IMG/VR virus record: IMGVR_UViG_3300042383_000245 | Location: 1 to 64,000 of that record | Length of the DNA stretch: 64,000 nt | DNA from: a virus | Direction: 5' to 3' (one strand) | Part shown: piece after piece, positions 53,647-59,584 of the stretch | How positions within the stretch are numbered: position 1 is the stretch's first letter | Layout of the letters: every line of letters starts with the position of its first letter | Notes under the pieces: generated by a model | Database searches by the model: none | Told to the model about the DNA's origin: nothing | The model's input: the letters and a program-made list of their open reading frames with translations, nothing else | Program-made: the position numbers and the translations under genes

Positions 53647-53845
53647 CGCCATGACCGGCTCTACGATCGTAGTATACGATTGTACCACCGTTTATGTCAG
53701 GTATAACGTCTTGGCCCACGTGGATACACTCCGCCTTCCCGTACCGCAGGTCGTTCTCGTCTGTTGATGTCATGATGAGCCCAGAGGAGGCTTTCGTCTC
53801 CTCTTTGATTGGCTCGATTACTATGTATTTTCCTATGGCTCTCAT
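53582..53845 (-). CDS. groES: GroES-like co-chaperonin
   Basis: 87 residues, close to the bacterial GroES length (~97). Cpn10 pattern: MRAIGKYIVIEPIKEETKASSGLIM (first strand and mobile loop), GKAECIHVGQDV, GGTIVYYDRRAGHGV, ERDVVLVLD. The ATG lies in the groEL stop (ATGA), so it follows groEL; in most bacteria groES comes first. The mobile loop lacks the clear IVL tripeptide but has SGLIM. It would cap the phage chaperonin during folding of virion proteins. Confidence 0.75.
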   Translation of the reverse strand: MRAIGKYIVIEPIKEETKASSGLIMTSTDENDLRYGKAECIHVGQDVIPDINGGTIVYYDRRAGHGVRIQNRPYHIIQERDVVLVLD

Positions 53846-55416
53846 TTGGCTCTTGCGTTAGTGATGATACAGTTGGTGCTCATGATCGTCGTGGCGACGC
53901 TTACGGCGTTCTCTAAGGCACTCTTGGTGACTTTTAGAGGGTCTATGATGCCCATCTCGATCATATTGCCTACACGGGCCTCTTTCACGTCGTATCCGTA
54001 GCCGAACTGTCCTTGATATCCCAAGGCGATGTCGCCCTTGATCTCGTTCGCGTCGTATCCTCCGTTTGCCAAGATGGTATTGAACGGCTGCTGCATGGCA
54101 TGCTTGAGGATGTTCTTTGCTGTCGAGCAGCCACACATCTCACCTGCGATGTTCAGAAGCGCCACACCACCACCGGGCAGGATGCCTCCCTCCATGGCGG
54201 CCTTGGTCGCGTACACCGCGTCCTCGACCCTGTCCTTCTTCTCTTTCATCTCCACGTCGCTCTGTGCGCCGACGTAGATAACACCAACACCACCTGCAAG
54301 GTTCGCCAAACGCTCCTCTAGGTGCTTTTTCACGTACTCGTTGGTCGCTTCCTCCAGTTTTGTGCGGATGGAATCGACGCGTGTCGCAACTCCAGCCTGA
54401 GACTCGTCGTCCGTCATGATAACAGTGCTGTCCTTAGCAACCACCACCTTGTTGGCGTGGCCTAGGTCAGCGAACGAAATGGTGAACAGGTTGTCGCCCG
54501 TCTCGTCAGAGATGTACTTGGCGCCGGTTGCGGCCGCGATGTCCTCCATGATCTCGGAGCGGTTGGCACCGAAGCTTGGTGGAACGATGGCGCAGACCTT
54601 GATCACTCCCTTCATCTTGTTCAAGTTTAGGCTGTTCAATGCGTTCTCCGCCAGCTCCGCGATGATCAGTATGCTTTTTCCTTGCTGCACGATCGGAGCC
54701 AATAGGTGCTCGATGTTGTTCAAAGACGATATCTCCTGGTCAGAGACCAGTATGTAGCAGTCCTCGAGGATCGCTTCGTTCTTTTTCTGGTCCGTGATGA
54801 AGTACTTCGACATGTAGCCCCTGTTTAGCTTCATTCCAGACACCACCTCTGAGTAAGTCGTAGCGTTGTTCGACGCCTCAACCGTTACAACGCCGTCTTT
54901 TGACACCATGGTATACGCGTCAGCGATGATCTGCCCCAGCTCTGGGTCATTATTGGCCGAAATGGTAGCCACAGACGCCAATGATTCGTCGGTTACCGGT
55001 ATCGCCATCGCGTCCAGAGCCTGTCCAACAGCAATTGCGAGGTCTTTCACCTCTCTGAGAACCTTTGTTGGGTTGTCCTCTGGCTTGATGAACTGCTGGT
55101 AGCCATGGATCAGGGCCTGCGTAAGCACCACAGACGTAGTTGTCCCGTCACCGGCAGCTGTTGCAGTCCTCTCAGAAGCCTCACGGACCATCTGCACGGC
55201 CAAATTCTGCGTTGGATCGTCCAATACGATGGACCTTGCGACGCTAACACCGTCTTTTGTTACGTGAATTCCGTGTGTGAACTGGTCAGACTCGATCAAT
55301 ACGGTCTGGCCACGGGCTCCGAGGGTGGATTTTACGGCATCGGCGATGATGTCAATGCCAGACACCAGCTTTGCACGGGCGTCAGCCCCAAATTCTACAT
55401 TTTTTACAATATTCAT
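53842..55416 (-). CDS. groEL: GroEL chaperonin
   Basis: 524 residues from MNIVKNVEFGADARAKLV; the 20-residue longer reading crosses the promoter at 55434-55441. Visible motifs: STLGARGQTVLIE, VTKDGVSVARSIVLDDP (catalytic-site region), AAGDGTTTSVVL (nucleotide site), GGILPGGGVALLNIA in the equatorial domain. It lacks the GGM-repeat tail of E. coli GroEL (ends TNARAK). Phage GroELs are known but uncommon; they fold capsid or tail proteins. Monocistronic pair with groES, preceded by a strong terminator and its own promoter. Confidence 0.9.
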   Translation of the reverse strand: MNIVKNVEFGADARAKLVSGIDIIADAVKSTLGARGQTVLIESDQFTHGIHVTKDGVSVARSIVLDDPTQNLAVQMVREASERTATAAGDGTTTSVVLTQALIHGYQQFIKPEDNPTKVLREVKDLAIAVGQALDAMAIPVTDESLASVATISANNDPELGQIIADAYTMVSKDGVVTVEASNNATTYSEVVSGMKLNRGYMSKYFITDQKKNEAILEDCYILVSDQEISSLNNIEHLLAPIVQQGKSILIIAELAENALNSLNLNKMKGVIKVCAIVPPSFGANRSEIMEDIAAATGAKYISDETGDNLFTISFADLGHANKVVVAKDSTVIMTDDESQAGVATRVDSIRTKLEEATNEYVKKHLEERLANLAGGVGVIYVGAQSDVEMKEKKDRVEDAVYATKAAMEGGILPGGGVALLNIAGEMCGCSTAKNILKHAMQQPFNTILANGGYDANEIKGDIALGYQGQFGYGYDVKEARVGNMIEMGIIDPLKVTKSALENAVSVATTIMSTNCIITNARAK

Positions 55417-55433
55417 ATTTGATTTTATTAGTG

Positions 55434-55441
55434 CAAATATA
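55434..55441 (-). promoter_or_regulatory. -7 promoter box TATATTTG before groEL
   Basis: Minus-strand TAnnTTTG, 17 nt before the ATG at 55416, with an A-rich leader containing AATCAAAT. Confidence 0.7.
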
Positions 55442-55447
55442 AACAAA

Positions 55448-55469
55448 AAAAGGGCCGTTAAGCCCTTTT
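55448..55469 (-). terminator. Intrinsic terminator upstream of groEL
   Basis: A perfect 8-bp stem AAAAGGGC/GCCCTTTT with a 6-nt loop, and a T-run on the minus strand. It ends the transcript of the small basic genes 56,345-55,490. Confidence 0.75.
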
Positions 55470-55489
55470 CTGTCACATTGTCGTGAAAA

Positions 55490-57536: not shown

Positions 57537-57671
57537 CTACCAAATGAATGTTACACGGAACAAACCTAAGTTGATGTCCAGTTCCTGGTGCTCGCCAGGA
57601 TAGTTAGACTGAAAGTACTCGACGCCGAATAGAAAGGCGGAGGGAAATAATAAGGAGATCTCGATACCCAT
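57537..57671 (-). CDS. 44-residue conserved hydrophobic small protein
   Basis: Product MGIEISLLFPSAFLFGVEYF then QSNYPGEHQELDINLGLFRV and TFIW. I recognise the 'IEISL.FPS.F.FG.EYF......LDI.L.LF.V.F.W' pattern as a very common tiny protein of Bacteroidota phages. A TACTTTTG box ends 4 nt before ATG. First gene of the minus-strand arm. Function unknown. Confidence 0.7.
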   Translation of the reverse strand: MGIEISLLFPSAFLFGVEYFQSNYPGEHQELDINLGLFRVTFIW

Positions 57672-57675
57672 GTAG

Positions 57676-57683
57676 CAAAAGTA
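57676..57683 (-). promoter_or_regulatory. -7 promoter box TACTTTTG, leaderless spacing
   Basis: Ends 4 nt before the ATG at 57671; a palindrome (57686-57705) lies just upstream, where a repressor would compete with RNA polymerase. Confidence 0.6.
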
Positions 57684-57685
57684 AG

Positions 57686-57770
57686 TATAAGTCGCCAGAC
57701 TTATAAGTGCCAATTATAAACCTATAGGCTTATAATCGACCATGTGATTTATACCTGTAGGTATAATACC
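57686..57770. promoter_or_regulatory. Cluster of operator-like palindromes in the divergent control region
   Basis: Four inverted repeats in 85 bp: TATAAGTC-GCCA-GACTTATA (57686-57705); ATTATAA...TTATAAT around CCTATAGG (57713-57736); TTATACC-TGTA-GGTATAA (57749-57766); GGTAT-A-ATACC (57760-57770). The third matches the palindrome in the leader of the 53,179 regulator. They lie between the first minus-strand gene and the early plus-strand cluster, where a lytic switch would act. Confidence 0.6.
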
Positions 57771-57789
57771 GGGGAGTACTAGATGTTTA

Positions 57790-58107: not shown

Positions 58108-58135
58108 ATGTTGACATGCATAGAATTGTCAACAT
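58108..58135. promoter_or_regulatory. Operator-like palindrome upstream of the early cluster
   Basis: ATGTTGACA (58108-58116) and TGTCAACAT (58127-58135) are perfect 9-bp arms with a 10-bp spacer, so the centres lie about two helical turns apart. The right arm ends 7 bp before the -7 box at 58143, so a bound protein would cover the promoter. Confidence 0.65.
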
Positions 58136-58142
58136 AAAGAGT

Positions 58143-58150
58143 TACTTTTG
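58143..58150 (+). promoter_or_regulatory. -7 promoter box TACTTTTG of the early cluster
   Basis: Plus-strand TAnnTTTG, 24 nt before the ATG at 58175; overlapped on its upstream side by the palindrome at 58108-58135. Confidence 0.65.
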
Positions 58151-58174: not shown

Positions 58175-58447
58175 ATGAACACAATCTCAATCAACGCAGA
58201 CAGCCAATTCTTCCAAGACTTAATGGACGAGAGCAAGGCAATCAACATCAACGGCAACATGGTTGCCAAGGGTTATTGGAACTTGGTTCTATCAATCCGT
58301 GACTGCTCCATGTACGCCAAGGTAGGCATGAAACCACATCGCCATTGGAAGATAACCGACGTAAAGAAATACTTCGGCATCAAGGGTACAGCACAGCAGA
58401 TACACGAGCAACTTGTACAAATCAAAGAGGCAATCACCGAAGGTTAA
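58175..58447 (+). CDS. Early-cluster hypothetical protein 1
   Basis: 90 residues from MNTISINADSQFFQDLMDES, chosen because the -7 box at 58143-58150 lies upstream and a longer reading would begin inside the promoter. Predicted mixed alpha/beta with GYWNLVLSIRDCSMYAKVG and a C-terminal helix. No family recognised. Its stop codon TAA is the last three bases of the 5' strand of stem I of the first hammerhead ribozyme, so translation end and ribozyme folding are physically linked. Confidence 0.7.
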   Translation: MNTISINADSQFFQDLMDESKAININGNMVAKGYWNLVLSIRDCSMYAKVGMKPHRHWKITDVKKYFGIKGTAQQIHEQLVQIKEAITEG

Positions 58448-58495
58448 CTGACGAGTCTTAACTAGACGAAACGGGGCTCACGCCCCGTCTTAACC
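58442..58495 (+). ncRNA. Hammerhead ribozyme 1 (type I)
   Basis: Complete core: stem I GGTTAA (58442-58447) with TTAACC (58490-58495); CTGACGA (58448-58454); stem II GTCT/AGAC (58455-58458, 58464-58467) with loop TAACT; GAAA (58468-58471); stem III six further base pairs (58472-58477 with 58482-58487) after the conserved A15.1-U16.1 pair (58471-58488); C17 at 58489. Predicted cut between 58489 and 58490, leaving a 19-nt leader before the next ATG (58509). All invariant core positions are present. Confidence 0.9.
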
Positions 58496-58508
58496 AAAAC
58501 AAAAGAAC

Positions 58509-58817
58509 ATGAAAATCTACTCAGTAAACAAAAGCGAAGACGGGTTAATGACCCAAGCATTCACCAACATCAAAGCCTTGTACAACGGCATCGTTGAGCA
58601 CGGGTACAACGCAGAGACCATCACGATGGTAAGCAGACCCGACGATAGGTCAAACATGCAAGGCTACAAGTTCACGGACGTGAAATTCACATATGCGAAC
58701 CTAGTCAAGGCATTGCGAGATTCATCGGACGGAGGTCGGTTATACGAACGGGTGACCATCAACTGCGAGAGGGACAACTTCATGTACGTATCGGAGCACC
58801 AAATCGTATCAAAGTAA
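58509..58817 (+). CDS. Early-cluster hypothetical protein 2
   Basis: 102 residues: MKIYSVNKSEDGLMTQAFTN opening, an alpha/beta body (VKFTYANLVKALRDSSDGGR) and a C-terminal YVSEHQIVSK. No domain recognised. The leader after ribozyme cleavage is A-rich with no Shine-Dalgarno. The stop is immediately followed by the second hammerhead. Confidence 0.7.
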   Translation: MKIYSVNKSEDGLMTQAFTNIKALYNGIVEHGYNAETITMVSRPDDRSNMQGYKFTDVKFTYANLVKALRDSSDGGRLYERVTINCERDNFMYVSEHQIVSK

Positions 58818-58875
58818 GGTTAACTGACGAGTCTTCAGTAGACGAAATGGGCTGGCCATCCAGCCCATCTTAACC
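58818..58875 (+). ncRNA. Hammerhead ribozyme 2 (type I)
   Basis: Stem I GGTTAA (58818-58823)/TTAACC (58870-58875); CTGACGA (58824-58830); stem II GTCT/AGAC (58831-58834, 58840-58843), loop TCAGT; GAAA (58844-58847); stem III 10 bp including the A-U pair (58847-58856 region with 58860-58868), loop CCAT; C17 at 58869. Predicted cut 58869/58870, 21 nt before ATG 58891. Stem III is a different sequence from copy 1 with pairing kept, i.e. compensatory change. Confidence 0.9.
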
Positions 58876-58890
58876 AACACACACATAGAC

Positions 58891-59289
58891 ATGAAGCACC
58901 TTATCAAATTACCCCAAGTGAATCCCGTTTACATCGTATCAAGCGAAGACGACAGCATGTACGCTGTGGTAGAACACAACGAGACCCTCGCCCACATCGT
59001 CGAGACCATCGACGGCACAAGGCAGACCTTGTACTTCCCCAACGGCGGAGAGATGTACTTCCAAGATACTGACCTACACCAAGTGATGAGCCATGTGCCA
59101 AGCAGAACCAACTACGACATGGCATGGATGTGGTTTCAAGAGAACGAGTTTTCGTTCTTGCATGACCGAGGAAACGGAACAATCCAAGTGTACGTTGAGA
59201 ACCCGAACAAAACTCAGCAATGCTACATGGACATATCACCCGAGGAGATTGACTATCGTGCTCAACTTTGGAGAGAGTCAAGAGGTTAA
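58891..59289 (+). CDS. Early-cluster hypothetical protein 3
   Basis: 132 residues: a beta-rich N-terminus (NPVYIVSSEDDSMYAVVEHN), then aromatic-rich region (YDMAWMWFQENEFSFLHDRG) and an acidic C-terminus. No recognised family. Stop codon lies within stem I of the third hammerhead (59284-59289). Confidence 0.7.
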   Translation: MKHLIKLPQVNPVYIVSSEDDSMYAVVEHNETLAHIVETIDGTRQTLYFPNGGEMYFQDTDLHQVMSHVPSRTNYDMAWMWFQENEFSFLHDRGNGTIQVYVENPNKTQQCYMDISPEEIDYRAQLWRESRG

Positions 59290-59339
59290 CTGATGAGTCC
59301 TAGGTGGACGAAAGGGCTGGCCATCCAGCCCTCTTAACC
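59284..59339 (+). ncRNA. Hammerhead ribozyme 3 (type I)
   Basis: Stem I GGTTAA (59284-59289)/TTAACC (59334-59339); CTGATGA (59290-59296); stem II GTCC/GGAC (59297-59300, 59306-59309), loop TAGGT; GAAA (59310-59313); stem III 7 bp plus A-U pair (59313-59320 with 59325-59332), loop CCAT; C17 at 59333. Predicted cut 59333/59334, 20 nt before ATG 59354. Stem II differs from copies 1-2 by a compensated T-A to C-G change. Confidence 0.92.
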
Positions 59340-59353
59340 AAAACAACAACGAC

Positions 59354-59584
59354 ATGCAAAACGAAATGACCAAACTACTCACCGAGTATTCCGACGCAAA
59401 AAATTACATCCTCAAAATTACTGACGAGTATTACGACGCAATGTCATACGACATCGAGGGATGGTGGAACTTAATCGAGGATGACGAGGCTGACGAGAAA
59501 GACCTACACGAACTTCGCCTTCAAGTACATGCAGTAAAGTCTTTGCACATGGCTTTGTCTTGCCTTAAGTATAAGTTCTCCTAA
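59354..59584 (+). CDS. Early-cluster hypothetical protein 4
   Basis: 76 residues, acidic and helical (MTKLLTEYSDAKNYILKITD; LHELRLQVHAVKSLHMALSC). No domain recognised. It is the last gene of the ribozyme-punctuated run; no hammerhead follows it, and a new promoter box begins 2 nt after its stop. Confidence 0.65.
   Translation: MQNEMTKLLTEYSDAKNYILKITDEYYDAMSYDIEGWWNLIEDDEADEKDLHELRLQVHAVKSLHMALSCLKYKFS

What the first reader, a model, noticed from the sequence alone, without database searches (positions are those of the whole stretch)
58442..59339. Three tandem type I hammerhead ribozymes punctuate the early gene cluster
Seen directly: three complete hammerhead cores (CTGANGA, GAAA, C17, paired stems I, II and III) at 58442-58495, 58818-58875 and 59284-59339. 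Stem I is identical in all, while stems II and III differ with compensating changes, so structure is being kept. Each lies between consecutive small genes. Hammerheads are known self-cleaving RNAs, but a serial array that separates each gene of a phage operon is, to my knowledge, not a described arrangement. It would turn one early transcript into single-gene mRNAs with defined 5'-OH ends.
Basis: partly seen in the sequence, partly recalled or inferred. Interest (0 to 1): 0.96.

Follow-up and report, generated by a model that had tools for sequence, protein, structure and literature searches.

The report
Self-cutting RNAs between phage genes
Three small self-cutting RNAs (hammerhead ribozymes) sit between four consecutive small genes of a phage related to flavobacterial phages and very probably cut its messenger RNA into single-gene pieces; the arrangement was first described in 2011, but here it follows a strikingly constant layout found in many phages and missed by standard annotation.

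Summary
All three elements are complete type I hammerheads at the stated places. None reaches the Rfam cut-offs, but a covariance model built only from other phages scores them 62-65 bits (E about 1e-12). The same compact hammerhead occurs in many IMG/VR phages. With stem I left free in the search, 66 of 73 candidates with a stem III pair in stem I, with changing base pairs; slid controls give none.

Layout is constant. The upstream stop codon lies in or at stem I, and the cut falls 19-21 nt before the next ATG here (usually 18-29 nt elsewhere). All ribozymes of a locus lie on one strand. This supports cutting of a multi-gene transcript into single-gene mRNAs. Cleavage itself is untested.

The novelty claim fails. 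Perreault et al. 2011 (PMC3088659) described multiple hammerheads flanking single genes in prophages, proposed the same function, and showed cleavage of three tandem arrays in vitro and one in E. coli.

What is added: a fixed stop-ribozyme-leader-start module, a compact subclass that Rfam cut-offs miss (0 of 56 in 17 loci), single examples in named isolates (Cellulophaga phi18:3 and phi19:3, Flavobacterium elemovirus), and a sister phage that keeps the ribozymes while genes between them are exchanged.

The parts
58175..58447 (+). gene 1 (90 aa, unknown); its TAA stop lies inside stem I of ribozyme 1
58442..58495 (+). hammerhead ribozyme 1 (type I); C17 at 58489, cut expected between 58489 and 58490
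58490..58508 (+). 19-nt leader left on gene 2 after cleavage (TTAACCAAAACAAAAGAAC)
58509..58817 (+). gene 2 (102 aa, unknown); TAA stop directly before stem I of ribozyme 2
58818..58875 (+). hammerhead ribozyme 2; C17 at 58869
58870..58890 (+). 21-nt leader left on gene 3
58891..59289 (+). gene 3 (132 aa, unknown); TAA stop inside stem I of ribozyme 3
59284..59339 (+). hammerhead ribozyme 3; C17 at 59333
59334..59353 (+). 20-nt leader left on gene 4
59354..59584 (+). gene 4 (76 aa, unknown); no ribozyme follows it

Best explanation
These are three compact type I hammerhead ribozymes that punctuate a polycistronic phage transcript. Once transcribed, each folds and cuts itself after C17. The upstream mRNA keeps its whole reading frame and ends in the stem III hairpin with a 2',3'-cyclic phosphate, a form that 3' exonucleases should attack poorly. 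The downstream mRNA starts with a 5'-OH and a short unstructured leader of 19-21 nt that holds the ribosome entry region. The result is single-gene mRNAs with defined ends. Shown here by sequence: ribozyme identity, conservation of structure and catalytic residues, strand and position rules. Inferred: cleavage in infected cells, end chemistry (from hammerhead chemistry), and the benefit (uncoupling translation and decay of neighbouring genes).
For: Complete cores and stems. A model trained on other phages gives E about 1e-12. With stem I free in the search, 66 of 73 candidates with a stem III hairpin have at least 5 paired bases in stem I with all Watson-Crick types represented; slid pairing gives 0 with 6 pairs; strands swapped between ribozymes pair in 159 of 5256. 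A stems-only scan finds 226 structures, of which 221 carry CTGANGA, and position 17 is C 204, A 21, T 1, never G, the known catalytic constraint. Of 274 nonredundant relatives, 258 have an ORF start downstream, mostly 18-29 nt after the cut, and upstream stop codons fall at fixed offsets; the antisense control is flat. 92 loci hold more than one ribozyme, none on both strands; median spacing 480 nt, about one small gene. In phages with Shine-Dalgarno leaders the same ribozyme sits just upstream of the Shine-Dalgarno site. Tandem arrays of this kind cleave in vitro, and one does in E. coli (PMC3088659).
Against: No RNA data: cleavage is not shown for these molecules. Short spacing between stop, ribozyme and start could partly reflect genome compactness. 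A relative with a 62.6% identical portal protein (MW202828) has no match to the model, so the ribozymes are dispensable. Loci were found by searching for the core, so core conservation is partly selected; extra copies in arrays were not.
Confidence: 0.78

Rival explanations
1. The ribozymes cut, but the selected effect is at one end only: either the hairpin-capped 3' end of the upstream mRNA or the clean 5'-OH leader of the downstream mRNA (a natural ribozyme insulator). Separation of genes is a by-product.
For: Elemovirus has a second, weaker candidate (16 bits, E 0.37) in front of the first gene of an operon, without an upstream gene. The leader carries the host-type ribosome site.
Against: Both the stop side and the start side are held at narrow distances in most cases.
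Confidence: 0.3
2. Cleavage is gated by translation: a ribosome ending at the stop codon in stem I covers the ribozyme, so the RNA is cut only after the ribosome leaves.
For: Stop codons overlap stem I or the core at fixed offsets (-10, -6, -1, 0) in most cases.
Against: The conserved sequence itself supplies TAA and TGA in two frames, and compact phage genomes favour overlap, so the offsets need no regulation.
Confidence: 0.15
3. The ribozymes are spread mainly as repeats: shared sequence at gene borders lets phages exchange gene cassettes, and cutting is secondary.
For: Sister phage L433 keeps three ribozymes while genes 1 and 2 are replaced by unrelated genes.
Against: Shared sequence is very short; stems diverge with compensation and the catalytic core is kept, which recombination alone would not require.
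Confidence: 0.1
4. The structures act without cutting, as terminators or simple hairpin spacers.
For: Stem III is a strong G+C hairpin.
Against: No T run, and the terminator scan finds none there; catalytic residues would not be needed.
Confidence: 0.03

Closest known systems
Clustered hammerheads flanking genes in prophages (Perreault et al. 2011, PMC3088659)
   Same: Several hammerheads close together flanking single small genes; [quoted passage not shown] three arrays cleaved in vitro, one in E. coli.
   Different: Here a compact type I form with near-invariant layout (stop in stem I, cut 19-21 nt before ATG); hosts of related phages are Flavobacteriia; mostly in phage contigs rather than prophages.
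Hammerhead_1, Rfam RF00163
   Same: Core, three stems, open stem I.
   Different: Pentaloop II of form T-N-A-N-T in relatives (the Rfam consensus shows a six-base loop CAAAUA) and A on both sides of the 6-bp stem I; score 27.7 against a cut-off of 34.
RAGATH-1 hammerhead, Rfam RF03152
   Same: Hammerhead core and strong stem III; third element scores 36.5 bits.
   Different: The RAGATH-1 model has an upstream hairpin and a one-pair stem II; the window elements have a 4-bp stem II and no well-formed upstream hairpin.
RiboJ-type ribozyme insulators (synthetic biology; from general knowledge)
   Same: A hammerhead placed before a ribosome site to define the 5' end.
   Different: Engineered and promoter-proximal; here natural and between genes.

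Membership tests
Type I hammerhead ribozyme | Catalytic core C3 U4 G5 A6 N7 G8 A9, G12 A13 A14, A15.1-U16.1, H17 | tested here: met
   all three elements
Type I hammerhead ribozyme | Stems I, II and III around the core, stem I open-ended | tested here: met
   covariation in relatives
Type I hammerhead ribozyme | Tertiary contact between loop II and stem I side | tested here: inconclusive
   Conserved T-N-A-N-T loop and A flanking stem I in most relatives suggest one; structure not determined
Type I hammerhead ribozyme | Self-cleavage after H17 | not testable with these tools
   needs in vitro transcription
Rfam RF00163 (Hammerhead_1) | Score at or above the gathering cut-off | tested here: not met
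   27.7 against 34 bits for the first element; a curated threshold, not a biochemical criterion
Rfam RF03152 (RAGATH-1) | Gathering score and upstream hairpin | tested here: not met
   36.5, 24.8 and 19.7 against 56.3 bits; hairpin imperfectly paired
Clustered phage hammerheads (Perreault 2011) | Several hammerheads close together flanking single genes of a phage | tested here: met
   compared

The most novel reading that the evidence does not exclude
A compact, Rfam-missed hammerhead class is a standard mRNA-punctuation module across many phages, and because the upstream stop codon lies in stem I, cleavage is timed by the terminating ribosome, so that the switch from operon to single-gene mRNA depends on translation.
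Probability: 0.15. Interest if true: 0.82.

Novelty: new member of a known kind. Interest (0 to 1): 0.55.

Why it matters
The role of hammerheads in bacteria and phages is called an open question in the 2017 review (PMC6155905). The fixed stop-ribozyme-leader-start layout gives a sharp, testable prediction of both mRNA ends. Named isolates with known hosts carry examples (Cellulophaga phages phi18:3 and phi19:3, Flavobacterium elemovirus on strain BAL314), so it can be tested in infected cells. Standard Rfam annotation found none of 56 such ribozymes in 17 loci, so the class is probably badly under-counted in phage genomes.

Tried and rejected
Rfam at gathering cut-offs as a test: negative, but it also misses all 56 related ribozymes, so it is not informative here. 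RAGATH-1 membership: rejected. Terminators: rejected. Circular RNA through a phage ligase: no RtcB or RNA_ligase family in this phage. blastn of the ribozyme against named phages: only chance-level matches. Reversed-sequence control of the stems-only scan: invalid, because complementing keeps the stems; not used. Host-genome element: 1 of 148 Bacteroidota genomes, the centre genome chosen because it has one (only the top candidates of each genome were scored). Homologs of gene 2 in viral contigs: none. Coordinate slip for gene 1 was corrected to 58175. A paper search on phi18:3 failed on the colon in the name.

Full report
WHAT IS THERE. The window is nearly all of a 65,286-base virus record. 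Its portal and primase are related to those of flavobacterial phages: an uncultured podovirus from Manatee Spring (MW202828), Maribacter phage Panino, the Flavobacterium elemoviruses and Cellulophaga phages. A rightward cluster of small genes starts at 58175 (by sequence), divergent from the structural genes on the minus strand. Between the first four genes lie three hammerhead ribozymes, exactly as reported. Gene products have no known family above cut-off.

ARE THEY REAL. Rfam at gathering scores is silent. With relaxed thresholds Hammerhead_1 and RAGATH-1-hammerhead match below their cut-offs. I built a model from 35 ribozymes of other phages. It scores the three window elements 64.7, 62.9 and 62.3 bits, E about 1e-12. 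The finder gives 300 hits in the first set of loci and none in reversed sequence. In the set where stem I was left free, 66 of 73 candidates with a stem III hairpin pair in stem I over five or more bases, with changing pairs; sliding by 1 to 3 bases never gives six pairs. On the model alignment 14 of 16 pairs change on both sides; full pairing there is partly by selection, so one search is the cleaner test. A stems-only scan that ignores the core recovers CTGANGA in 221 of 226 and never G at position 17.

THE COMMON LAYOUT. Relatives share a 6-bp stem I flanked by A on both sides, a 4-bp stem II and a loop II of form T-N-A-N-T. The A-A flank persists when stem I sequence is entirely different (36 of 66), which suggests a tertiary contact between loop II and the stem I border; this is inference. 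The upstream stop codon lies in stem I, in the core or directly before it. The cut lies mostly 18-29 nt before the next ATG; 244 of 395 show both rules together in a strict count. In the window the leaders are 19, 21 and 20 nt, and the stops are in stem I, directly before it, and in stem I. Leaders are A-rich in the TTAA stem I group (SD-like motif in 28 of 234) and more often carry a Shine-Dalgarno-like motif in the others (43 of 78). No locus has ribozymes on both strands. Arrays reach nine in one phage record and nine in a 5.8-kb contig binned with an Aliivibrio MAG.

SISTER PHAGE. L433, from a phage whose portal protein is 99% identical, has three ribozymes at the corresponding place. The third is nearly identical. 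The second keeps its stem II but has another stem III and A17. The first keeps stem III while stem II is changed with compensation. The genes before and after the first ribozyme are unrelated to those of the window, while gene 3 is 88% identical. In L433 gene 3 has a leader-like sequence (ATTAACTAAAAACATAGACATG) but no ribozyme in front. So genes turn over faster than the ribozymes that separate them.

NAMED ISOLATES. Model R1 finds one ribozyme each in Cellulophaga phages phi18:3 and phi19:3 and in elemovirus genomes of groups C, E and F, among annotated small genes; the other related or control isolates searched have none. They are therefore not essential.

MECHANISM. The simplest account is co-transcriptional self-cleavage that turns an operon transcript into single-gene mRNAs with hairpin-protected 3' ends and short 5'-OH leaders. 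Sequence shows the parts and their placement; cleavage, end chemistry in the cell and benefit are inferred from hammerhead biochemistry and from the published cleavage of similar arrays. No RNA ligase of the RtcB or RNA_ligase families is encoded, which makes phage-driven circularisation less likely.

KNOWN OR NEW. Perreault et al. [quoted passage not shown] coli. The 2017 review says that hammerheads lie close together flanking small ORFs and calls the role open. The arrangement is therefore known and this is a new member. The additions are the precise layout, its wide occurrence, its invisibility at Rfam cut-offs (0 of 56 in 17 loci) and testable isolates. The literature library holds open-access papers only and no preprints, so a later survey of phage hammerheads may exist that I could not see.

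Noticed in passing
window 53842-55476 (-): The phage encodes its own GroEL-type chaperonin (Cpn60_TCP1, E 1.4e-57; phrog_5725).
   Followed up: no
window 57660-57785: Stretch of short inverted repeats (ACTTATAAGT, CCTATAGG, ATACCTGTAGGTAT), well conserved in the sister phage L433; possible regulatory or replication site.
   Followed up: no
window 58111-58133: TTGACATGCATAGAATTGTCAA inverted repeat directly upstream of a TAnnTTTG-like box (58143-58150): operator-like arrangement before gene 1.
   Followed up: no
L087, L130, L274: Three ribozymes with CCGATGA in place of CTGANGA (U4 to C) but otherwise intact stems; possible slower variants.
   Followed up: no
L433 2970-3003: Leader of gene 3 keeps the ribozyme-type sequence although the ribozyme in front of it is absent: possible loss or exchange scar.
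   Followed up: partly
NC_021789.1 752-1678 (-): Cellulophaga phage phi19:3, which carries a hammerhead, also encodes an RNA ligase family protein.
   Followed up: no
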